64,000 bases of DNA from an uncultured Pseudokineococcus sp. Its GTDB lineage: Bacteria > Actinomycetota > Actinomycetes > Actinomycetales > Quadrisphaeraceae. The notes below the pieces were generated by a model, which made no database searches, was not told where the DNA came from, and was given only the letters and a program-made list of their open reading frames with translations. Numbering within the stretch: position 1 is the first letter of the stretch; each line of letters opens with the position of its first letter. A program made the position numbers and the translations under genes. Shown here piece after piece: positions 45,219 through 57,736 of this stretch. The DNA lies in assembly GCF_947495735.1 (NCBI RefSeq), contig NZ_CANMAA010000001.1, positions 310,001 through 374,000 on the forward strand. The letters are read 5' to 3'.

Positions 45219-46205
45219 GTGAGCACCCCCGACGGCCCGCGGCTCGTGTCCTTCCCCGACGAGGAGCTGGCCCGCGAGGTGGGGATCCCCCTCGTGGGGT
45301 CCGGAGGAGGGGCCCGTCCGGACGGCGTCGAGGCGGTGGTGTGGGACGTCGGGACGCCGCCGGCGCAGGCGCTGGCCCCGCAGGAGCTGGACCGGCTGTC
45401 CCTCGTCGTGCTGCCGTACCACGGAACCCCGTCGGCCATCGGCTCGCTCGGCGACCTGCCGGCGCTGCGCGTCGTCCAGACGCAGACGACCGGCGCCGAC
45501 GCCGCGGCGCCGCACGTGCCCGAGGGAGCGGCCCTCGCCACGGCGTCGGGGGCGCACGACGCCGGGACGGCCGAGATCGCCGTCGCGCTGCTGCTCGCGA
45601 GCGTGCGCCGGCTGGACGAGGCCGTGCGCGACATGGCGCAGGAACGCTGGCGCGCCCCCGACGGCCTGCGCCCGGGACTGGCCGGTCGGACGGTCGTCGT
45701 CCTCGGCGCGGGCGGCATCGCCAACGCGATCGCGCGGCGCCTGGCCCCCTTCGAGCTGGAGCTCGTGCGGGTGGCCACCCGCGCCCGCACCGACGACCTC
45801 GGCGCCGTGCGCTCGACGGACGAGCTGCCCGGGCTGCTGCCGTCCGCCGACGCGCTCGTCGTCGCCGTCCCCCTCACCGACGGCACGCGCGGGCTCGTCG
45901 ACGCCGACGTGCTCGCCGGGCTGGCGGACGGCGCCGTGGTGGTGAACGTGGCCCGCGGCCCGGTCGTGGACACGGACGCCCTCGTCGCGGAGGTCTCGGT
46001 CGGGCGCCTGCGGGCGGCGCTCGACGTCACCGACCCCGAGCCGCTGCCGCAGGACCACCCGCTGTGGAGCCTGCCGGGCAGCATCGTCACGCCGCACGTG
46101 GGCGGGGCCACCGACGCGATGCGCCCGCGCGTCGTCGCCCTCCTGCAGCGCCAGCTGCGAGCCTTCGCCTCGGGGCAGGACCTGGAGAACGTCGTCGGCG
46201 GCTGA
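45219..46205 (+). CDS. D-isomer-specific 2-hydroxyacid dehydrogenase
   Basis: NAD-dependent dehydrogenase of 328 residues. The cofactor fold has [16 protein letters not shown] (about residue 150), and the catalytic triad is in place: Arg in [15 protein letters not shown], Glu in [15 protein letters not shown] and His in [12 protein letters not shown]. It is shorter than phosphoglycerate dehydrogenase and lacks an ACT domain, so glyoxylate/hydroxypyruvate or another small 2-oxoacid is likelier. It lies 91 nt before ilvD but both have their own -10 boxes. GTG start 6 nt after CACGAT. Confidence 0.9.
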
Positions 46206-48185: not shown

Positions 48186-48647
48186 ATGCCGACCCAGCCC
48201 GCGGAGGTCGACGACGTCGACCGCGCCATCGTCGCCGCGCTCGTGGCGGACGGCCGCACCAGCTACACCGACCTGGGCAAGCAGGTGGGGCTGCCGACGT
48301 CGACGGTCCACCAGCGCGTGCGGCGCCTCGAGCAGCGCGGCGTGGTGACGGGGTACACGGCCGTCGTGGACCCCGAGGCGCTGGGTCTGCCGCTGTCGGC
48401 CATCGTCTCGGTGACGCCCTTCGACCCGGCGGCGCCGGACGACGTCCCCGAGCGCCTGGCCACCGTCGCCGAGGTCGAGTCCTGCTGGTCGGTCGCGGGG
48501 GAGGAGTCCTACGTGCTCCTCGTCCGCACCGAGACGCCGGGACGCCTCGAGGAGGTGCTCGCCGAGATCCGCACCGCCGGCTCGGTCGCCACCCGCACGA
48601 CGGTGATCCTCTCCACCCCGTTCGAGGGCCGCCGCCGCACGTCCTGA
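48186..48647 (+). CDS. Lrp/AsnC family transcriptional regulator
   Basis: A 153-residue feast/famine regulator. The N-terminal winged helix reads VDDVDRAIVAALVADGRTSY, then TDLGKQVGLPTSTVHQRVRR; the C-terminal RAM ligand domain has VVDPEALGLPLSAIVSV and VESCWSVAGEESYVLLVRTE. Such proteins bind an amino acid and control its synthesis or breakdown. Here it lies after ilvD and 2.1 kb upstream of a lysine-degradation gene set, so either lysine or a branched-chain amino acid is a reasonable ligand; the sequence cannot decide. TAGCGT lies 7 nt before the ATG. Confidence 0.92.
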   Translation: MPTQPAEVDDVDRAIVAALVADGRTSYTDLGKQVGLPTSTVHQRVRRLEQRGVVTGYTAVVDPEALGLPLSAIVSVTPFDPAAPDDVPERLATVAEVESCWSVAGEESYVLLVRTETPGRLEEVLAEIRTAGSVATRTTVILSTPFEGRRRTS

Positions 48648-48783: not shown

Positions 48784-49776
48784 GTGGCGATGCGCGAGGG
48801 CTGGCCGTTCGACCGCGACGACGGGCGTGAGACCGCCCCGACGGACGACGGCTCGACCACCGGGCGCGGGGACGGCGGGCCGCGGGTCCGCTCGGGGTCG
48901 CGCCCCGTGCTGCGCGCCCTCGGCATCACGGCCGTCACCACGACCTCCGCGCTGGGCGTGCTGGGGCTCGGCGCTCTCGTGGTGAGCGGCCTGGGCGGGC
49001 TCGACGTCGTCCTCACCGGTGCGCGGGAACCCGCGGAGGCGTCCGCGCCCGCCGGCTCGGCGGGGTCCCAGGGCTCGAGCGAGCTCGGCGACGACTACCT
49101 CGCCTCCCTGGCCGAGGAGGAGCCGACGCCCCCGCCTCCCCCGCCCGACGCCGTCGAGCCGGCGGACGTGCCCGAGCCCGTGGTGCGGGTGGTGCCGCTC
49201 GCGCCGGGGGAGTCCTTCGCCGAGGACGACCACCCGTGGGCCGTCGCGTACGAGGTCCCGGACACCGGGGCGAGGTGGTCGGAGGCCCTCCCGGAGGGCC
49301 TGCTGCCGCTGGGCGACATCGGGCAGCACCGCTCCCAGCCCACCGTGCCGGGGCAGAGCTGCAACGGCCCGTCCTCGGCCGCCGTCGCGGGCCGCCAGTG
49401 GATGTGGGCGGAGGAGGACTCGAACAGGCTCGACCAGACCAGCGTCAGCCTCGTCGTCACGGGCTGGCCCACGGGCACCGGGCCGGCGGCCTTCGCCGAC
49501 GTCCGCCAGGACGACGGACCCTGCTCGTGGCTCGACGACGTACCGGTCGAGGTCGACGTCCACGTCCCCTCCGGCGACGAGGACTGGGCCGGCGTGCGCG
49601 CGAGCCCGACGGGCGACGGGTCCGAGGTCCTGCTCGGCGCAGCGCGCACGGGCGACCTGGTCGTCGGCGTCGAGGTGCGGCCGCCCGGCGACGGCTCCGC
49701 CGAGCTCGTCGGCGAGCTGCTCGAGGCTGCCGTCGTCGAGCTGCGGGAGGCCGATCCCGGCAGCGCCGCCGGGTGA
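48784..49776 (+). CDS. Single-pass membrane-anchored extracellular protein, unknown
   Basis: A 330-residue protein I do not recognise. Residues 1-40 are charged and cytoplasmic, 42-72 form one hydrophobic helix (LGITAVTTTSALGVLGLGAL), followed by an Ala/Ser-rich and Pro-rich spacer (PTPPPPPPDAVEP, about 118-130). The outer domain (130-330) has two Cys, in GQSCNGPSS and GPCSWLDD, that could form a disulfide, and a closing segment resembling lipoproteins that coat the cell wall. The GTG at 48784 has GGGGGA upstream; an ATG two codons later is possible. It is alone on its transcript as far as can be seen. Confidence 0.7.
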   Translation: MAMREGWPFDRDDGRETAPTDDGSTTGRGDGGPRVRSGSRPVLRALGITAVTTTSALGVLGLGALVVSGLGGLDVVLTGAREPAEASAPAGSAGSQGSSELGDDYLASLAEEEPTPPPPPPDAVEPADVPEPVVRVVPLAPGESFAEDDHPWAVAYEVPDTGARWSEALPEGLLPLGDIGQHRSQPTVPGQSCNGPSSAAVAGRQWMWAEEDSNRLDQTSVSLVVTGWPTGTGPAAFADVRQDDGPCSWLDDVPVEVDVHVPSGDEDWAGVRASPTGDGSEVLLGAARTGDLVVGVEVRPPGDGSAELVGELLEAAVVELREADPGSAAG

Positions 49777-49820: not shown

Positions 49821-50675
49821 ATGACCTTCTCGATCGTGGGCCGCAGCCCCGACGGCTCGGCCCTCGGCGTGGCCGTGGCCTCGAAGTTCCTCGCCGTGGG
49901 CGGGTACGTGCCCGCCCTGGAGGTGGGCGTCGGCGCGCTCGCGACGCAGGCGGCGGTCAACCTCGCGCTGAAGGCCGAGGGTCTGGACCTCATGCGTGCC
50001 GGGGCGACGGCGGGCGAGGCCCTGGACCGCTTCCTCGCGCAGGACGCGGGGCGCGCCGAGCGCCAGGCCGGGGCCGTCGACGCGCACGGGCGCGCGGCCA
50101 CCCGGACGGGGGAGGACTGCCACCCCTGGGCCGGGGGCGTGACCGGCGAGGGGCCCGAGGGCTCGTTCGCGGCGCAGGGGAACGTCCTCGCCGGGCCGGA
50201 GGTCGTCGACGCCATGGCCGCCGCCTGGCGCGCCTCCTCCGGGGAGCCCTCGCTGGCCCGGCGGCTGCTCGCGGCGCTCGAGGCCGGTGACGCCGCGGGC
50301 GGGGACCGGCGGGGCCGGCAGTCCGCCGCCCTCGTCGTGGTCGCGCCGGGCGGCGGCTACGGCGGGCACGACGTGGTCGTCGACCTGCGCAGCGACGACG
50401 ACCCCGCGCCCGTCCCGCACCTGGCGCGGATGCTCGCCGAGCACGAGCTGCTCTTCGGCCGCACGGCGCCGGAGGACCTGCTGGCCTGGGACGACGCCCT
50501 GCGCGCCGAGGTCCGCCACCTCCTCGACGCGGCGGGCGTGAGCGGTGGCGACCTCGAGGCGGACCTCGAGCGGTGGGCGGGGGCGCAGAACCTCGAGGAG
50601 CGCGTGCGCCCCGGCGGCCTGGACCGCCTCGACCCGGTCGTCCTGACGCACCTCCGGGACGCCGGGGAGCGCTGA
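49821..50675 (+). CDS. DUF1028 family protein
   Basis: A 284-residue protein with the DUF1028 N-terminus MTFSIVGRSPDGSALGVAVA, then VGVGALATQAAVNLALKAEG and the GSFAAQGNVLAGPEVVDAM segment. The family has an Ntn-hydrolase-like fold and is often linked with peptide or amino-acid use; no reaction is firmly established to my knowledge. The C-terminal 60 residues form an extra helical part with a putative peptidoglycan-binding-like look, uncertain. TACGGT lies 7 nt before the ATG. It directly precedes the lysine-degradation genes on the same strand, 85 nt upstream of lat, though lat has its own promoter. Confidence 0.88.
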   Translation: MTFSIVGRSPDGSALGVAVASKFLAVGGYVPALEVGVGALATQAAVNLALKAEGLDLMRAGATAGEALDRFLAQDAGRAERQAGAVDAHGRAATRTGEDCHPWAGGVTGEGPEGSFAAQGNVLAGPEVVDAMAAAWRASSGEPSLARRLLAALEAGDAAGGDRRGRQSAALVVVAPGGGYGGHDVVVDLRSDDDPAPVPHLARMLAEHELLFGRTAPEDLLAWDDALRAEVRHLLDAAGVSGGDLEADLERWAGAQNLEERVRPGGLDRLDPVVLTHLRDAGER

Positions 50676-50760: not shown

Positions 50761-52230
50761 ATGAGCGCACCCACCGTCGACCGCGCGGCGACGACGCCGC
50801 CCGCCGCCCCCGCGCCCGGCAGCGGGGTGGTGACCGCCGCCACCGCGCACGAGCACGTGGCGGCGCACATGCTCGACGACGGCCTCGGGCTCGTCCTGGA
50901 CCTGGCGGCCTCGCGCGGCTCGCGCCTCGTCGACGCGCGCGACGGCAGCTCCTACCTCGACATGTTCACGTTCTTCGCCTCCTCGGCCCTGGGCATGAAC
51001 CACCCGGACGTCGCCGAGGACGAGGACTTCGCGGCCGAGCTCCTGCGCTCGGCGCTGTCCAAGCCGAGCAACTCCGACATCGTCACGGTCGAGCGCGCGC
51101 AGTTCGTCGACGTCTTCGCCCGGGTCCTCGGCGTCCCCGAGCTGCCGCACCTGTTCTTCGTGGAGGGCGGCGGCCTCGCCGTCGAGAACGCCCTCAAGAC
51201 GGCCTTCGACTGGAAGAGCCGCTGGAACGAGAGCCACGGCCTGGACCCGGCGCTGGGCACGAAGGTGCTGCACCTGCGCCAGGCCTTCCACGGCCGCACC
51301 GGCTACACGATGTCCCTGACCAACACCGACCCGAACAAGGTCGCGCGCTTCCCGCAGTTCGACTGGCCGCGCATCGACAACCCCCACCCGGTCGAGGGCG
51401 AGGACGAGGCCGTCCTGCGCGCCCGCGAGGACGCCGCCCTGGCGCAGGCCCGTGCTGCGTTCGAGGCCGCCCCCCACGACGTCGCGTGCGCGATCGTCGA
51501 GCCGATCCAGGGCGAGGGCGGGGACAACCACCTCACCCCGCGCTTCCTGCAGGGTCTGCAGGCCCTCTGCCACGAGTTCGACGCCCTGTTCGTCTGCGAC
51601 GAGGTGCAGACGGGCTGCGGCCTGACCGGCACGGCGTGGGCGCACACCCAGCTCGGCCTCGAGCCCGACGTCGTCGCCTTCGGCAAGAAGACGCAGGTCT
51701 GCGGGATCATGGCCGGTCGTCGCGTGGACCTCGTGCCCGACAACGTCTTCCGCGTCTCCAGCCGGATCAACTCCACCTGGGGCGGAGGTCTCGTCGACAT
51801 GGTGCGCGCGCGCCGGATCCTCGAGGTGTGCGAGCGCGACGACCTCTTCGCCGGTGCGGCCCGCGCCGGGGAGCACCTGCGCGCCGGGCTCCGCGACCTC
51901 GCCTCCCGGCACCCCGAGGTCACCGACGTGCGCGGTCGCGGCCTGATGTGCGCCTTCGACCTGCCCGACGGCGAGCGCCGCGGGGCGCTGCTCGCCCACC
52001 TCGAGGAGCACGAGCACGTGCTCGCGCTCGGCTGCGGCTCGCGCAGCGTCCGCTTCCGCCCGGCGCTGACGGTGTCCACCGCGGAGCTGGACGAGGCCCT
52101 CGCGGCGGTCGACCGCTCCCTGGCGGCCCTGGCCGGCGCGGCGGCGGGTGACACGGCGATGGCCGGCGCCGCCGCGGGCGCGTCGGTCGGGACGCCGGCA
52201 CCGGGCGGACCGTCGGGGGAGCCGTCCTGA
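50761..52230 (+). CDS. lat: L-lysine 6-transaminase
   Basis: Class III PLP aminotransferase that moves the epsilon-amino group of L-lysine to 2-oxoglutarate, giving 2-aminoadipate 6-semialdehyde (in equilibrium with piperideine-6-carboxylate). The 489-residue product carries LDMFTFFASSALGMNHPD, FFVEGGGLAVENALKTAFDW, HGRTGYTMSLTNTDPNK, EPIQGEGGDNHLTP, CDEVQTGCGLTGTAW and the PLP Lys in VVAFGKKTQVCGIM, all specific to Lat. The C-terminal 30 residues are an Ala/Gly-rich tail. The stop overlaps the putative CTG start of hglS. First gene of a lysine-to-2-hydroxyglutarate set. Confidence 0.95.
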   Translation: MSAPTVDRAATTPPAAPAPGSGVVTAATAHEHVAAHMLDDGLGLVLDLAASRGSRLVDARDGSSYLDMFTFFASSALGMNHPDVAEDEDFAAELLRSALSKPSNSDIVTVERAQFVDVFARVLGVPELPHLFFVEGGGLAVENALKTAFDWKSRWNESHGLDPALGTKVLHLRQAFHGRTGYTMSLTNTDPNKVARFPQFDWPRIDNPHPVEGEDEAVLRAREDAALAQARAAFEAAPHDVACAIVEPIQGEGGDNHLTPRFLQGLQALCHEFDALFVCDEVQTGCGLTGTAWAHTQLGLEPDVVAFGKKTQVCGIMAGRRVDLVPDNVFRVSSRINSTWGGGLVDMVRARRILEVCERDDLFAGAARAGEHLRAGLRDLASRHPEVTDVRGRGLMCAFDLPDGERRGALLAHLEEHEHVLALGCGSRSVRFRPALTVSTAELDEALAAVDRSLAALAGAAAGDTAMAGAAAGASVGTPAPGGPSGEPS

Positions 52231-53624
52231 CCGGGGTAGCGGGGTTCGTCGGGACGACCGAGCTGCGGGCCCGCTTCGCCGCCGCGCTCTCCGCGCTGTA
52301 CGCCACCGAGGTGCCCGCCTACGGCACGCTCGTCGAGGTCGCCGGCCAGGTCAACGCCGACGTCCTGGCCCAGGACCCGGCCGCGGCGCAGGCGCTCGGC
52401 AGCATCGAGCGCGTCACCGCGGAGCGGCACGGCGCCATCCGCGTGGGCACGGCGCGCGAGCTGGGGCAGGTCGGGCAGGTGTTCGCGGCCCTCGGCATGA
52501 GGCCGGTGGGCTTCTACGACCTGCGGGAGGCGGGGCAGCCCGTGCCGGTGGTCTCGACGGCCTTCCGGCCCGTCGACGACGACGAGCTGGCCGCCAACCC
52601 CTTCCGCGTCTTCACCTCCGTGCTCGCCACGGACGACCGCCGCTTCTTCGACGCGGACCTCCAGGCCCGGCTCGAGGAGCGCCTGGAGGCGCGTGAGCTC
52701 TTCAGCCCGCTGCTGCTCACCCTCTCCGCCCGGGCCGAGGAGGACGGCGGGCTCGCGCCGGAGGACGCCGACGCCCTCGTCCGGCTGGCGACCGCGGCCT
52801 TCGCGCTCTCGCCCGAGCCCGTCGACGCCGCGTGGTACGCCGAGCTGGAGCGGGTCTCCGGCGTCGCCGCGGACATCGGCGGCGTCGGGTCCACCCACGT
52901 CAACCACCTGACGCCGCGGGTGCTCGACATCGACGCGCTGTACGCCCGGATGACCGGGCGCGGGGTCGCGATGATCGACGCCATCCAGGGTCCGCCCGGC
53001 GGTGGTGCGCCGGTCCTGCTGCGCCAGACGAGCTTCCGCGCGCTGTCGGAGCCGCGGGCGATGCGCGACCCCGACGGCTCCGTGCGCGCCGGGTCCCTGC
53101 GCGTGCGCTTCGGCGAGGTGGAGGCCCGCGGCTGCGCCCTGACCCCGGCGGGGCGGGCCCGCTACGACGCCTGGATGGCGGCCGGCGGCACGCCCTCCGA
53201 GCAGGACCGCCTGTGGCGCAGCCTGATCCCGGACGACCCCGACGAGCAGGCCGCTGCCGGGCTCACCAGCGTGCGGTGGGTGCCGGTGGCCGACCGCCCG
53301 CGCGACGGCGCCGTCCCCGCGGCCGACCTGGCGCGCCTGCTCGCCGACGGGTGGGTGCGCGCCGAGCCCGTCGTCTACGAGGACTTCCTGCCCGCCTCGG
53401 CGGCGGGGATCTTCGCGTCCAACCTGGACGGGACGGGGGAGCGGGACGCCTCGGCGGGCCGCAGCCACCGCGACGCCGGCTGGCTGGCCGACGCGCTCGG
53501 CCGCGAGGTCCTCGAGCCGGCGGACCTGTACGCCGCCACGAGCGCGGCGAGCGCGGCCGAGGTGGCGCGCGTGCTGGACCTGCCCCCGCTCGAGCAGCCC
53601 GTCGCACCGTCGGCTCCCGCCTGA
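52227..53624 (+). CDS. hglS: 2-oxoadipate dioxygenase/decarboxylase (HglS, DUF1338)
   Basis: Fe(II) enzyme that converts 2-oxoadipate to D-2-hydroxyglutarate with loss of CO2. The metal ligands are seen: His in VTAERHGAIRVGT, His in GSTHVNHLTPRVLDID and Glu in RFGEVEARGCALTP. There is no ATG or GTG where the family begins. The homologous N-terminus (FVGTTELRARFAAALSALYA) lies upstream of the first GTG (52311), and the only fitting start is CTG at 52227, overlapping the lat stop (CTGA) with GGGGGAG 5 nt upstream. This gives 465 residues, the usual family length. Coupled with lat, it places 2-oxoadipate downstream of lysine. Confidence 0.9.
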   Translation: MTGVAGFVGTTELRARFAAALSALYATEVPAYGTLVEVAGQVNADVLAQDPAAAQALGSIERVTAERHGAIRVGTARELGQVGQVFAALGMRPVGFYDLREAGQPVPVVSTAFRPVDDDELAANPFRVFTSVLATDDRRFFDADLQARLEERLEARELFSPLLLTLSARAEEDGGLAPEDADALVRLATAAFALSPEPVDAAWYAELERVSGVAADIGGVGSTHVNHLTPRVLDIDALYARMTGRGVAMIDAIQGPPGGGAPVLLRQTSFRALSEPRAMRDPDGSVRAGSLRVRFGEVEARGCALTPAGRARYDAWMAAGGTPSEQDRLWRSLIPDDPDEQAAAGLTSVRWVPVADRPRDGAVPAADLARLLADGWVRAEPVVYEDFLPASAAGIFASNLDGTGERDASAGRSHRDAGWLADALGREVLEPADLYAATSAASAAEVARVLDLPPLEQPVAPSAPA

Positions 53625-53751
53625 CACGCTCGCCCACGAGAACCGGGGCGTCCCGGCGGACCGCCGTCCCCGACGACCCGGGCGCCGCACCCGCCACCCG
53701 CGGTGCGGCGCGACCGCCCCCGCACCGACCACTCCCACCGGAGGAACCACC

Positions 53752-55407
53752 GTGACCAGCCCTGAGCCCCCCACCCCCGGCCGCACCCCCGAGGGCGAGC
53801 CGCTCGAGGGGGCGCTCGCCGAGCCGGGGGGCCCGGCCGGCGCCGCCCTCGGCCTCGTCGCCGGCACCGACGAGATCCGCGAGCGCGCTCTGGCCGCGCT
53901 GCGGGCCTGCGGCGTCGACATCGACGGCCTGCGCGCCGAGGGCGAGGGCGCGGCCGCCCGCGGCGCGGCCGTCGTCACCGCACGCACCCCGGTGACGGGG
54001 GAGGACCTGCTGCCCCTGCCGGCCACGAGCGCCGACGGCGTCGAGGCCGCCGTCACCCTGGCCACGGGCGCCTTCGGCGTCTGGCGCACCACGCCCGCAC
54101 CGGTGCGCGGCTTCCTCGTCAAGCGCCTCGGGGAGCTGCTGGTCGACCACCTCGACGACCTCGCCGTGCTCGTGACGACCGAGGTCGGCAAGACGCCGTC
54201 CGAGGCGCGCGGCGAGGTGCAGGAGATGGTCGACGTCTGCGACCTCGCCGTCGGCCTCTCGCGCCAGCTGACCGGGCGCACCATGCCGTCGGAGCGGCCC
54301 GGGCACCGCCTCATGGAGACCTGGCACCCCCTGGGGCCGGTCGCCGTCATCAGCGCCTTCAACTTCCCCGTCGCCGTCTGGGCGTGGAACAGCGCCCTGG
54401 CGCTCGTGTGCGGGGACCCGGTCGTGTGGAAGCCCTCGGAGCTGACGCCGCTGACCGCGCTGGCGTGCACCGCGCTCGCCGAGCGGGCGGCCCGGGAGAG
54501 CGGCGCCCCGGAGGGCCTCGTCCCGCTCGTGCTCGGCGGTGCCGAGGTCGGGAAGGCCCTGGTCGACGACGCCCGCGTCCCCCTGGTGTCGGCGACGGGC
54601 TCGGTCCCCATGGGCCGGGACGTCGGCGCCCGCGTCGCCGGCCGGTTCGGCCGGACGCTGCTGGAGCTCGGGGGCAACAACGCCGCCGTCGTCGCGCCCT
54701 CGGCCGACCTGGACCTCGCCGTGCGCGGCATCGTCTTCGCGGCCGCGGGGACCGCGGGCCAGCGCTGCACCACGCTGCGCCGCCTGCTCGTGCACTCCTC
54801 GGTCGTCGACGAGCTGCTGGCGCGGCTCGTGGACGTCTACCGACGGCTGCCCGTGGGCGACCCATCGGCGCCGGGCGCTCTGGTCGGGCCGCTGGTGGCG
54901 CCCCGCGCGCACGAGGCGATGGAGCGGGCCCTCGAGGCGGCCCGCGCCGACGGCGGCGAGGTGCTCGTCGGCGGCGAGCGCGTCCTCGTCGAGGAGGCGC
55001 CCGCGGCCCGCTACGTGCGCCCGGCCGTCGTGCGGATGCCGGCCCAGACCGACGTCGTGCGCGCCGAGACCTTCGCGCCGGTGCTCTACGTCCTCACCTA
55101 CGACGACCTCGACGAGGCGATCGCCCTGCAGAACGACGTCCCGCAGGGGCTCTCGAGCGCGATCTTCACCCTCGACGCCCGCGAGGCTGAGCGCTTCATG
55201 GCCGCCGACGGCTCGGACTGCGGCATCGTCAACGTCAACATCGGCACCTCGGGGGCCGAGATCGGCGGCGCCTTCGGGGGCGAGAAGGAGACCGGGGGCG
55301 GTCGGGAGTCGGGCTCGGACTCCTGGCGCGCGTACATGCGCCGGGCCACCAACACGGTGAACTACAGCCGCGAGCTGCCGCTGGCCCAGGGCGTCGACTT
55401 CGGCTGA
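53752..55407 (+). CDS. ALDH7-type aldehyde dehydrogenase (2-aminoadipate semialdehyde / piperideine-6-carboxylate dehydrogenase)
   Basis: NAD(P)-dependent dehydrogenase, 551 residues. Segments WHPLGPVAVISAFNFPVAVW, LLELGGNNAAVVAPSADLDL (catalytic Glu) and AGTAGQRCTTLRRLLVHSSV (catalytic Cys, about 341) are those of the antiquitin/AmaB group, which oxidises 2-aminoadipate 6-semialdehyde, the product of Lat. The first 60 residues are an Ala/Gly/Pro-rich extension. GTG start with GGAGGA upstream, 127 nt after hglS; probably the same transcript. The aminotransferase needed between 2-aminoadipate and 2-oxoadipate is not in the window. A 14-bp hairpin follows. Confidence 0.92.
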   Translation: MTSPEPPTPGRTPEGEPLEGALAEPGGPAGAALGLVAGTDEIRERALAALRACGVDIDGLRAEGEGAAARGAAVVTARTPVTGEDLLPLPATSADGVEAAVTLATGAFGVWRTTPAPVRGFLVKRLGELLVDHLDDLAVLVTTEVGKTPSEARGEVQEMVDVCDLAVGLSRQLTGRTMPSERPGHRLMETWHPLGPVAVISAFNFPVAVWAWNSALALVCGDPVVWKPSELTPLTALACTALAERAARESGAPEGLVPLVLGGAEVGKALVDDARVPLVSATGSVPMGRDVGARVAGRFGRTLLELGGNNAAVVAPSADLDLAVRGIVFAAAGTAGQRCTTLRRLLVHSSVVDELLARLVDVYRRLPVGDPSAPGALVGPLVAPRAHEAMERALEAARADGGEVLVGGERVLVEEAPAARYVRPAVVRMPAQTDVVRAETFAPVLYVLTYDDLDEAIALQNDVPQGLSSAIFTLDAREAERFMAADGSDCGIVNVNIGTSGAEIGGAFGGEKETGGGRESGSDSWRAYMRRATNTVNYSRELPLAQGVDFG

Positions 55408-55765: not shown

Positions 55766-57736
55766 ATGGCCAGCGCCGACCAGCGCACCGCCCCTCGTCC
55801 GGGACCCCGCCCCGCGCCCCCGGCGCACTCGCAGGTCACGGTCGGGCAGGCGCGCCCGGCCGACCCGGCACCGACCGACGAGCACGGCGAGCCGATGACC
55901 GGGGCCCAGAGCCTCGTCCGCTCGCTGGAGGCGGCCGACGTCGAGGTCGTCTTCGGCATCCCGGGCGGCGCCATCCTGCCCGCGTACGACCCGCTGCTCG
56001 ACAGCCCGACGGTGCGCCACATCCTGGTGCGCCACGAGCAGGGCGCCGGCCACGCCGCCCAGGGCTACGCGCAGGCCACCGGCCGCGTCGGCGTCTGCAT
56101 GGCCACCTCGGGCCCGGGCGCCACGAACCTCGTCACCGCGATCGCCGACGCCCACATGGACTCGATCCCCATGGTCGCCATCACCGGGCAGGTCTCGTCG
56201 GCCGCGATCGGCACCGACGCCTTCCAGGAGGCCGACATCGTCGGGATGACGATGCCGGTGACCAAGCACAACTTCCTCGTCACCGACCCCCGGGACATCC
56301 CGCGGACGATCGCCGAGGCCTTCCACATCGCCTCCACCGGGCGGCCCGGGCCGGTCCTGGTGGACATCTCCAAGGACGCCCTCCAGGCGCGGACGACCTT
56401 CCGCTGGCCCACCCGCCTGGACCTGCCGGGCTACCGGCCCACCACCACCCCGCACCGGCGCCAGGTGCGCGAGGCCGCGAAGATGCTGGCGGCGGCCGAG
56501 CGCCCCGTCCTCTACGTGGGCGGCGGCGTCCTCAAGGCGCACGCCGCGGCCGAGCTGGCCGAGCTCGTCGAGCTCTCCGGCGCCCCCGTCGTCACGACGC
56601 TGATGGCCCGGGGCGCCCTGCCGGACAGCCACCCGAGCAACCTCGGCATGCCGGGGATGCACGGCACCGTCGCCGCCGTGACGGCGCTGCAGAAGGCCGA
56701 CCTCCTCGTCGCCCTCGGCTCGCGCTTCGACGACCGCGTGACCGGCAAGCTCTCCAGCTTCGCGCCGGACGCCCGGGTCGTCCACGCCGACGTCGACCCC
56801 GCCGAGATCGGCAAGAACCGGGTCGTGGACGTGCCGATCGTCGGGGACGCGCGCGAGGTCCTCGCCGAGCTGGTGCCGGCCCTGCGCGCCGAGCACGCCG
56901 ACGGCTCCCGCGCCGACCTGGCGGAGTGGTGGCGCCAGCTCGACCAGCTGCGCCGCACCTACCCGCTCGGCTACGCCGAGGCCGAGGACGGCTCGCTGGC
57001 CCCCCAGCGGGTCATCGCCCGCCTCGGGGAGATCGCCGGTCCGGAGGCGATCTACGTCTCCGGCGTCGGCCAGCACCAGATGTGGGCCGCCCAGTTCATC
57101 GGCTACGAGCGCCCCGGGAGCTGGATCAACTCCGGCGGCCTCGGCACGATGGGCTTCGCCGTGCCCGCGGCGATGGGCGCCAAGGTCGGCGACCCCGACC
57201 GCGTCGTCTGGGCCGTGGACGGCGACGGCTGCTTCCAGATGACCAACCAGGAGCTCGCCACCTGCGCCCTGAACGGCATCCCCATCAAGGTCGCCGTCAT
57301 CAACAACTCCAGCCTGGGCATGGTGCGCCAGTGGCAGACCCTCTTCTACGAGGGCCGCTACTCCAACACCGACCTGCACACCGGCGCGGCGGTCGAGATG
57401 GGCCAGCGCATCCCCGACTTCGTCAAGCTCGCCGACGCCTACGGGTGCGTGGGGCTGCGCTGCGAGCGCCCCGAGGACCTCGACGCGACGATCGAGGCGG
57501 CCATGGCCGTCACCGACCGACCCGTCGTCGTGGACTTCGTCGTCCACCGCGACGCCATGGTGTGGCCGATGGTCGCCGCCGGCGTCAGCAACGACGAGAT
57601 CCAGTACGCGCGCGGCGTCTCGCCGGAGTGGGACCGCGACGAGGAGACGAGCACCGAGGACGACACCGCCCCCACCCCGACCGGCCCCGGCGTCGCCCTC
57701 GAGGACGTGGTGGGCGACGAGGAGGGGCAGCGATGA
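55766..57736 (+). CDS. ilvB: Acetolactate synthase large subunit
   Basis: Thiamine-diphosphate enzyme making acetolactate or acetohydroxybutyrate, first common step of valine, leucine and isoleucine synthesis. The 656-residue product has [15 protein letters not shown], the TPP Glu in [15 protein letters not shown] (about residue 95), [18 protein letters not shown], the FAD domain, and the TPP/Mg motif [17 protein letters not shown] ending at [13 protein letters not shown]. About 45 N-terminal residues precede the conserved [11 protein letters not shown], as in mycobacterial IlvB. The ATG has GGAGGA 5 nt upstream; its stop overlaps ilvN (ATGA). Confidence 0.97.

What the first reader, a model, noticed from the sequence alone, without database searches (positions are those of the whole stretch)
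50761..55407. A lysine-to-2-hydroxyglutarate route encoded in one actinobacterial cluster
lat, hglS and an ALDH7-type dehydrogenase are adjacent. Lat and the dehydrogenase turn L-lysine to 2-aminoadipate; HglS uses 2-oxoadipate. HglS was worked out in Pseudomonas D-lysine catabolism and plants; here it is coupled to L-lysine 6-transaminase. A 2-aminoadipate aminotransferase and a D-2-hydroxyglutarate dehydrogenase must be elsewhere, unless Lat itself also transaminates 2-aminoadipate.
Basis: partly seen in the sequence, partly recalled or inferred. Interest (0 to 1): 0.55.

Follow-up and report, generated by a model that had tools for sequence, protein, structure and literature searches.

The report
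Lysine breakdown cluster with HglS
An actinobacterium carries, side by side, three genes of an L-lysine breakdown route that runs through 2-hydroxyglutarate; the enzymes are of known kinds, and relatives suggest that the front end of the route is swappable.

Summary
The genome is Pseudokineococcus-like. Two of three genus relatives show the whole cluster with an Lrp regulator of mycobacterial type upstream; the third is cut before lat. hglS has no ATG/GTG/TTG in its conserved N-terminus; an in-frame CTG overlapping the lat stop (CTGA) is conserved in four genomes. Most likely role: L-lysine catabolism. Lat and Pcd give 2-aminoadipate, then 2-oxoadipate; HglS gives D-2-hydroxyglutarate, then 2-oxoglutarate forms. 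Of the two missing steps, a D-2-hydroxyglutarate dehydrogenase candidate lies elsewhere in the genome, and its homologues lie within 10 kb of hglS in 11 of 71 loci; the 2-aminoadipate step is unresolved, an AspC-like aminotransferase being the best candidate. The coupling is not unique: mycobacterial loci carry lat-lrp divergent from hglS-pcd, and NCBIfam already names the enzymes. In 42 of 71 loci a FAD oxidase sits where lat sits here. Verdict: real, mostly ordinary enzymology, a new variant of a known route.

The parts
48186..48647 (+). lrp/asnC-type regulator, 153 aa (ATG 48186)
   Evidence: PF01037 on a shorter piece; no NCBIfam match at E 1e-20; best solved relatives 2vbw/2ivm/2qz8, 158 bits, E 1e-45, which I recall as the mycobacterial Rv3291c LrpA; 52-58% identical to the Lrp divergent from hglS in five mycobacterial loci
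48784..49776 (+). hypothetical protein between lrp and lat; no family
   Evidence: no Pfam or NCBIfam match; 51 and 67% identical over parts in two Pseudokineococcus relatives
49821..50675 (+). DUF1028 protein, role unknown
   Evidence: PF06267, 223 bits; solved relative 2imh, hypothetical protein; 85-86% identical in two Pseudokineococcus relatives; among the 71 HglS loci matched only in L002
50761..52230 (+). lat, L-lysine 6-transaminase (class III, PLP)
   Evidence: TIGR03251 682.2 bits, cut-off 520.8; 275 of 429 aligned residues identical to chain 2cin; K300, E243, R422, R170 and five other positions conserved (residue roles recalled)
52227..53624 (+). hglS, 2-oxoadipate dioxygenase/decarboxylase (hydroxyglutarate synthase); probable CTG start at 52227 overlapping the lat stop (CTGA); GGGGGAG at 52215-52221
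   Evidence: PF07063; NF050083 622.8 bits, cut-off 600; 196 of 434 aligned residues identical to P. putida HglS; His68, Arg72, His227, Glu297 align with H70, R74, H226, E294; junction conserved in four genomes of the genus
53752..55407 (+). pcd, piperideine-6-carboxylate / 2-aminoadipate semialdehyde dehydrogenase (ALDH7 type)
   Evidence: NF050084 785.1 bits, cut-off 730; best solved relative 6rtr, semialdehyde dehydrogenase Pcd, 742.7 bits
46297..48075 (+). ilvD, flanking gene of branched-chain amino acid synthesis (context only)
   Evidence: NF002068 and TIGR00110 above cut-off
55766..57736 (+). ilvB, acetolactate synthase large subunit (context only)
   Evidence: name from my reading of the translation, no family search; 91-95% identical in the three genus relatives whose stretches were fetched, behind pcd in each

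Best explanation
The cluster encodes three of the five steps of an aerobic L-lysine catabolic route, probably under an Lrp-type regulator. (1) Lat moves the epsilon-amino group of L-lysine to 2-oxoglutarate, giving 2-aminoadipate semialdehyde, which cyclises to piperideine-6-carboxylate. (2) Pcd oxidises it to L-2-aminoadipate. (3) An unlinked aminotransferase, most likely the AspC-like enzyme on contig 6, gives 2-oxoadipate. (4) HglS, with Fe(II) and O2, decarboxylates and hydroxylates 2-oxoadipate to D-2-hydroxyglutarate. (5) An unlinked flavin and iron-sulphur D-2-hydroxyglutarate dehydrogenase on contig 3 returns 2-oxoglutarate, the amino acceptor of steps 1 and 3. Steps 1, 2 and 4 are assigned by curated equivalog models and intact residues; steps 3 and 5 and the regulation are inferred from relatives; no activity was measured. 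lat and hglS are probably translationally coupled through a CTGA overlap.
For: All three enzymes pass equivalog cut-offs. HglS keeps the metal triad and Arg74, the residue that sets 2-oxoadipate specificity in P. putida (PMC7286885, passages). HglS is strongly tied to Pcd in the class: odds ratio 178, 20 of 22 within 5 kb. The order lrp...lat-hglS-pcd is held in the two genus relatives with whole stretches; the third is cut at a contig end just before hglS. Five mycobacterial loci place lat-lrp divergent from hglS-pcd (L057, L058, L061, L062, L063), and two MAGs have lrp-lat-hglS (L068, L070). Homologues of the genome's D-2-hydroxyglutarate dehydrogenase candidate (47-53% identical) lie in 11 of 71 hglS loci (flanks up to 10 kb), directly upstream of hglS in three Nonomuraea loci. 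Of four plasmid regions read, out of 77 plasmid records with a match, two alphaproteobacterial ones have hglS, the aldehyde dehydrogenase, an aminotransferase and a FAD-linked oxidase in a row; in L087 that oxidase passes the YdiJ cut-off, in L086 it is GlcD-like below cut-off. Their aminotransferase is nearest to the contig 6 enzyme (39-45%, against 22-29% for the genome's other class I enzymes that matched).
Against: 67 of 78 Lat genomes in the class sample have no HglS match at E 1e-50, and 6 genomes have lat and pcd linked with no HglS, two of them in genus g18, so Lat plus Pcd often serve without HglS; in G152 HglS is on another contig than the lat-pcd pair. The two MAG loci have no Pcd in the stretch held, and hglS of L068 is broken into two frames. 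The step 3 candidate is below its own equivalog cut-off (371 of 617 bits, 'aspartate transaminase') and may be plain AspC; the step 5 candidate scores 430 bits against the YdiJ model (cut-off 1350). Of the other two plasmid regions read, one has hglS with a LysR gene and an AmaA-like oxidase only, one has no annotation. No expression, growth or enzyme data were seen for this organism.
Confidence: 0.8

Rival explanations
1. Lat itself does both transaminations: it accepts 2-aminoadipate in its glutamate site and so gives 2-oxoadipate, making the cluster self-sufficient down to D-2-hydroxyglutarate.
For: No other 2-aminoadipate enzyme was found in the cluster. The genome gave no match at E 1e-10 to the GDH-like dehydrogenase found near hglS elsewhere (the tool warns that an empty answer without a positive control shows nothing). 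Lat's checked residues are those of the solved enzyme, which takes both lysine and glutamate (residue roles recalled). 2-Aminoadipate is glutamate plus one carbon.
Against: Some hglS loci cluster a separate amino acid dehydrogenase or aminotransferase, and the genome has several general aminotransferases. No assay was seen.
Confidence: 0.15
2. Lat and Pcd supply 2-aminoadipate as a building block (beta-lactam or other peptide), and hglS is a side branch or chance neighbour.
For: Lat plus Pcd are the precursor pair of cephamycin producers (recalled; PMC6746716 passages). The genome has a peptide synthetase on two proteins reading A-T-C-A-T and C-A-T-TE: three adenylation domains, the same number as ACV synthetase (recalled).
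Against: That synthetase lies about 310 kb from lat. The genome has only two condensation-type domains at E 0.001, so no epimerisation domain of the kind ACV synthetase has (recalled) was seen, and no ACV-synthetase model or structure is among the best rows. By reading, its neighbours include a phosphopantetheinyl transferase and sugar-nucleotide genes. Isopenicillin N synthase was not searched for. lat-hglS-pcd is kept in the genus and linked in mycobacteria.
Confidence: 0.06
3. The cluster is a lysine overflow or stress-response module rather than a growth route: it drains excess lysine when Lrp senses amino acid imbalance.
For: The regulator is of the mycobacterial LrpA type. In M. tuberculosis lat and pcd rise when lysine builds up (PMC6746716, passages). 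The cluster sits inside a branched-chain amino acid synthesis neighbourhood.
Against: HglS and a D-2-hydroxyglutarate dehydrogenase would carry the carbon to 2-oxoglutarate, which suits use as well as disposal. The two readings share one chemistry.
Confidence: 0.3
4. This HglS acts on a substrate other than 2-oxoadipate.
For: It is 45% identical to the P. putida enzyme over aligned residues and Val402 is Ala here.
Against: Arg74 and the metal triad are kept; in 84 HglS rows Arg is in all 84 and the triad in 83, the exception being a 295-residue fragment. Val402 is reported to act through its backbone amide (PMC7286885, passages).
Confidence: 0.04

Closest known systems
Pseudomonas putida D-lysine route (amaA, amaB, 2-aminoadipate transaminase, hglS, ydiJ)
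   Same: Same trunk: piperideine-6-carboxylate to 2-aminoadipate to 2-oxoadipate to D-2-hydroxyglutarate to 2-oxoglutarate; HglS 45% identical over aligned residues with the same active site.
   Different: Entry here is by L-lysine 6-transaminase, not by pipecolate oxidase. The P. putida gene layout and route are recalled; the 2019 paper was not held.
Mycobacterial lat-lrp / hglS-pcd divergent cluster (recalled as Rv3290c-Rv3293)
   Same: Same four genes; HglS falls with the mycobacterial ones at SH-aLRT 93, below the 95 mark; linked Lat-HglS in 9 genomes of genus g18 that score over the NF050083 cut-off.
   Different: Here all four are co-directional, with two extra genes between lrp and lat, hglS directly behind lat, and ilv genes on both sides.
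Streptomyces/Actinoplanes-type cluster: LysR-type regulator, FAD oxidase, hglS, pcd
   Same: Same hglS-pcd core in the same order.
   Different: A DAO-family FAD oxidoreductase takes the place of lat in 42 of 71 loci; it is not listed under the AmaA model at E 1e-20. Lat was not found in 15 of 16 Streptomyces genomes searched; 14 of the 16 have the oxidase.
Cephamycin precursor pair lat and pcd of Streptomyces (recalled)
   Same: Lat and Pcd are homologous; the best solved Pcd relative is 6rtr.
   Different: hglS in between here. A three-adenylation-domain peptide synthetase exists elsewhere in the genome but was not matched to ACV synthetase.

Membership tests
L-lysine 6-transaminase (TIGR03251) | score above curated cut-off; catalytic lysine and glutamate switch residues | tested here: met
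   682.2 of 520.8 bits; K300, E243, R422, R170 conserved (roles recalled)
L-lysine 6-transaminase (TIGR03251) | transfers the epsilon-amino group of lysine | not testable with these tools
   needs an assay
HglS, 2-oxoadipate dioxygenase/decarboxylase (PF07063, NF050083) | score above cut-offs over full length | tested here: met
   PF07063 394.5 of 25; NF050083 622.8 of 600 with the CTG start; 588.4 if started at GTG 52311
HglS, 2-oxoadipate dioxygenase/decarboxylase (PF07063, NF050083) | His-His-Glu metal triad and substrate-binding arginine | tested here: met
   His68, His227, Glu297, Arg72; requirement from PMC7286885 passages, numbers of the triad residues recalled
P. putida-type HglS (NF049974) | score above curated cut-off | tested here: not met
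   385.8 of 550: it belongs to the actinobacterial branch
Piperideine-6-carboxylate dehydrogenase (NF050084) | score above curated cut-off | tested here: met
   785.1 of 730
D-2-hydroxyglutarate dehydrogenase YdiJ (NF049975), for the contig 3 candidate | score above curated cut-off | tested here: not met
   430.6 of 1350; FAD, 4Fe-4S and CCG domains present; the works-like claim rests on linkage of its homologues to hglS
2-aminoadipate transaminase (NF049976) | a genome copy above cut-off | tested here: inconclusive
   of the genome's four class III enzymes only L101 shows a score with this model, 220 of 650 bits; Lat's own score was outside the 25 rows shown; the ArgD-like and HemL-like proteins were named by reading only
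Complete lysine-to-2-oxoglutarate pathway in one cluster | all five steps encoded together | tested here: not met
   no gene for the 2-aminoadipate or D-2-hydroxyglutarate step was recognised in the cluster; one neighbour gene has no known family

The most novel reading that the evidence does not exclude
Actinobacteria run a modular catabolic trunk, Pcd and HglS, fed by interchangeable entry modules: Lat with an Lrp regulator (L-lysine) or a DAO-family FAD oxidase with a LysR regulator (probably pipecolate or another cyclic or secondary amine). In some lineages the trunk is completed by two further clustered genes: a YdiJ-like D-2-hydroxyglutarate dehydrogenase and a glutamate-dehydrogenase-like enzyme that would be an L-2-aminoadipate dehydrogenase, for which I recall no dedicated enzyme. 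Pseudokineococcus has the Lat module where seven genomes of other genera of its family have the oxidase module.
Probability: 0.5. Interest if true: 0.5.

Novelty: new variant of a known kind. Interest (0 to 1): 0.33.

Why it matters
One paper on M. tuberculosis says that mycobacteria kept only the first two reactions of this aminoadipate branch (PMC6746716, passages). An HglS between lrp and pcd in the mycobacterial loci seen here (M. tuberculosis itself was not examined) argues that the branch can go on to 2-oxoglutarate. D-2-hydroxyglutarate would then be a normal lysine intermediate in a number of actinobacteria. The recurring glutamate-dehydrogenase-like gene near hglS gives a cheap test for a dedicated 2-aminoadipate dehydrogenase.

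Tried and rejected
Missing steps in the genome. PF02913 gave two places: one YdiJ-like protein on contig 3 (kept) and one 589-residue FAD oxidase beside a hydrolase gene (dropped by reading: too short for the Fe-S part, no link to hglS seen). PF00155 gave eight places: AspC-like, AlaT-like, DapC, PatB-like and two MocR-type regulators, and two named HisC-like by reading only. PF00202 gave four: Lat, an ArgD-like and a HemL-like (by reading) and one general enzyme. The GDH-like gene of relatives gave no match at E 1e-10 (no positive control), and the FAD oxidase c2 only matches of 24-34% identity.

The NAD-dependent 2-hydroxyacid dehydrogenase at about 45261-46205 was considered for the D-2-hydroxyglutarate step: it passes no equivalog cut-off, is the second least conserved neighbour in two genus relatives (75-76%) and is matched in only one hglS locus outside the genus (L055, 44%). 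Set aside.

Horizontal transfer of the cluster: in the quick HglS tree the genus groups with mycobacteria (SH-aLRT 93) and not with its own family, but the tests reject neither one family clade (p-AU 0.66) nor one Lat-linked clade (p-AU 0.726), and in both the held tree scored better than the free one. Undecided. The 'latlinked' label there includes L003 and L060, whose contigs end before lat.

Checked again: it has three adenylation domains on two proteins. I raised that rival from 0.04 to 0.06.

Papers: ten searches listed no paper whose title or abstract start treats Lat coupled to HglS in actinobacteria. Four papers were opened (PMC7286885, PMC6746716, PMC12910592, PMC9504171), as passages. 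The library lacks most subscription papers, so this is weak evidence of absence.
Full report
What is there. The window lies in a 4.2 Mb actinobacterial assembly of 59 contigs. Its nearest named relatives are Pseudokineococcus (HglS 89% identical in L002 and L003). On the + strand run a 2-hydroxyacid dehydrogenase (about 45261-46205), ilvD, an Lrp/AsnC regulator, a hypothetical gene, a DUF1028 gene, lat, hglS, pcd and then ilv genes (ilvB and ilvC named by reading, with 91-96% identical genes in the same order in relatives). Lat, HglS and Pcd each reach their curated equivalog cut-off. One HglS-family match was found in the genome.

hglS start. The reading frame holds no ATG, GTG or TTG before 52311, yet the alignment to the P. 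putida enzyme begins at 52242. In the window, in L002 (same contig as L113), in L003 (same contig as L112) and in L111 an in-frame CTG overlaps the lat stop as CTGA, behind GGGGGAG. Over 21 codons upstream of GTG 52311, window and L111 differ at 9 codons synonymously and 1 non-synonymously, window and L113 at 5 and 1. So the stretch is very probably translated, and CTG is the likely start. Gene callers that demand ATG/GTG/TTG will clip hglS by 28 residues, and the clipped protein falls below the NF050083 cut-off (588.4 of 600; 622.8 unclipped).

Active sites. P. putida H70, R74, H226 and E294 align with His68, Arg72, His227 and Glu297; V402 is Ala, S403 is Ser. Arg74 and the His-His-Glu requirement come from PMC7286885 (passages); the numbers of the two histidines and the glutamate are recalled. 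In 84 HglS rows the arginine is in all 84 and the full triad in 83; the exception is a 295-residue fragment, L068. Lat keeps all nine residues checked against the solved mycobacterial enzyme.

Conservation of the arrangement. A scan of genome contigs gave 71 HglS loci, many cut by contig ends. Pcd lies in 61 of 71. A Lat of at least 64% identity lies in 8 of 71: one Pseudokineococcus (L002), five mycobacterial loci with lat-lrp divergent from hglS-pcd, and two MAGs (Jatrophihabitans L070, Pseudonocardiales L068) with lrp-lat-hglS but no Pcd in the stretch held. L003 and L060 end just before hglS. In 42 of 71 a DAO-family FAD oxidoreductase (c2) lies directly upstream of hglS, and in 26 of 71 a LysR-type gene (c3, by reading) is present. 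In the own family 11 of 13 genomes have HglS. All ten besides the own were fetched: the seven from other genera have c2, hglS and pcd together, in six in that order and in one (L105) with hglS inverted; of the three of the same genus, two have lrp to pcd complete and one is cut before lat. So this genus has Lat where its family has the oxidase; whether those seven genomes have Lat elsewhere was not searched. The own genome has no close c2 (24-34% identity, against 47-55% in the family). Tree tests do not tell transfer from replacement.

Statistics. In one even sample of 296 genomes of the class (analysed): Lat in 78, HglS (NF050083, E 1e-50) in 23, Pcd (E 1e-200) in 52. HglS and Pcd: 22 shared, 20 within 5 kb, odds ratio 178, Fisher p 6e-18. 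Lat and HglS: 11 shared, 10 within 5 kb, odds ratio 2.8, p 0.024. Lat and Pcd: 17 shared, 17 within 5 kb, odds ratio 1.5, p 0.30. None is corrected for kinship; 9 of the 10 close Lat-HglS pairs are in genus code g18, the tenth is the window. Against a general coupling: 67 of 78 Lat genomes lack HglS, 6 genomes have lat and pcd linked with no HglS (two of them in g18), and in G152 HglS lies on another contig than the lat-pcd pair.

Lat in genomes with other entries. Of 50 genomes searched (50 of the 71 loci; 21 Streptomyces dropped because of a cap), 27 have Lat. Of the 16 Streptomyces among them, one does. Loci of Nonomuraea, Sinosporangium, Promicromonospora and Myceligenerans show no close lat near hglS, but their genomes have one. 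So c2 is not simply a substitute for Lat everywhere.

The missing steps. D-2-hydroxyglutarate oxidation: a 1060-residue FAD/4Fe-4S/CCG protein on contig 3 (L083 7351-10530, minus) is YdiJ-like (430 bits, below the 1350 cut-off). Its homologues at 47-53% identity lie in 11 of 71 hglS loci, directly upstream of hglS in three Nonomuraea loci. YdiJ itself is an experimentally shown D-2-hydroxyglutarate dehydrogenase (PMC9504171, abstract start and passages). 2-Aminoadipate deamination: in 7 of 71 loci (two by partial hits) and in one family genome (L108) a glutamate-dehydrogenase-like gene lies nearby; in L071 the order is YdiJ-like gene, GDH-like gene, hglS, pcd. In L108 its neighbour is a FAD hydroxyacid dehydrogenase nearest to glycolate oxidase among solved structures (311.7 bits; D-2-hydroxyglutarate dehydrogenase 148). 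The best solved relatives of the GDH-like protein are glutamate dehydrogenases. It keeps the KGG-R motif whose lysine, as I recall, binds the side-chain carboxylate in glutamate dehydrogenase. A 2-aminoadipate dehydrogenase is a fair guess. The own genome gave no match to it at E 1e-10 (without positive control). On two of four plasmid regions read (of 77 records with a match) the aminotransferase beside hglS is of the 'aspartate transaminase' PRK06107 type, below its cut-off. The nearest enzyme of the own genome is the contig 6 AspC-like one: 39-45% identical, the others that matched 22-29%. Since it too is far below the cut-off and AspC is a housekeeping enzyme, this is only a candidate.

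A rival use of 2-aminoadipate. The genome has a peptide synthetase about 310 kb away: one protein with a 600-residue unmatched N-terminus and then A-T-C-A-T, a second with C-A-T-TE. Three adenylation domains is the number of ACV synthetase (recalled). The genome has two condensation-type domains only, so no epimerisation domain was seen; the best model and structure rows name other synthetases. Isopenicillin N synthase was not searched for. I hold this unlikely, not excluded.

What is known. PMC7286885 (outline and passages) describes HglS in P. putida and plants; a find for actinobacteria, mycobacteria, aminotransferase and gene-context words gave none. PMC6746716 (passages) describes Lat and Pcd in M. 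tuberculosis and holds that only the first two reactions remain. PMC12910592 (passages) lists Lat; a find for Rv3292 gave none. NCBIfam holds an actinobacterial HglS equivalog and a piperideine-6-carboxylate dehydrogenase equivalog, so the enzyme names are already in annotation pipelines. I therefore call the window cluster a new variant of a known kind: known trunk, different entry, new layout.

Judgement. The finding is real and the chemistry is likely. The surprise is modest. The more interesting part lies in the relatives: swappable entry modules and a possible dedicated 2-aminoadipate dehydrogenase.

Noticed in passing
52215-52230: hglS appears to start at CTG overlapping the lat stop (CTGA), behind GGGGGAG, conserved in four genomes of the genus; automatic gene calls would clip 28 residues.
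   Followed up: yes
L071 5914-11374; L108 12056-14607; L007, L018, L021, L023, L012: A glutamate-dehydrogenase-like gene recurs near hglS with a hydroxyacid dehydrogenase; possible L-2-aminoadipate dehydrogenase.
   Followed up: partly
L028 8746-9921 and 41 other loci: DAO-family FAD oxidoreductase (c2) upstream of hglS; nearest solved relative 1y56_B; possible pipecolate-type oxidase, not listed under the AmaA model at E 1e-20.
   Followed up: partly
49821-50675: DUF1028 gene kept between lrp and lat in this genus; role unknown.
   Followed up: no
G000 contig 1, 42679-53570 (L119): A peptide synthetase on two proteins (A-T-C-A-T, C-A-T-TE) near an ABC transporter gene and, by reading, a phosphopantetheinyl transferase and sugar-nucleotide genes.
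   Followed up: partly
L055 (Mycobacterium sp. GA-2829): A divergent HglS beside a YdiJ-like gene with no Lat in the stretch; the genome has Lat elsewhere. Possible second HglS lineage in mycobacteria.
   Followed up: no
67 of 78 Lat-bearing genomes of the class sample have no HglS match; the fate of their 2-aminoadipate is unknown.
   Followed up: no
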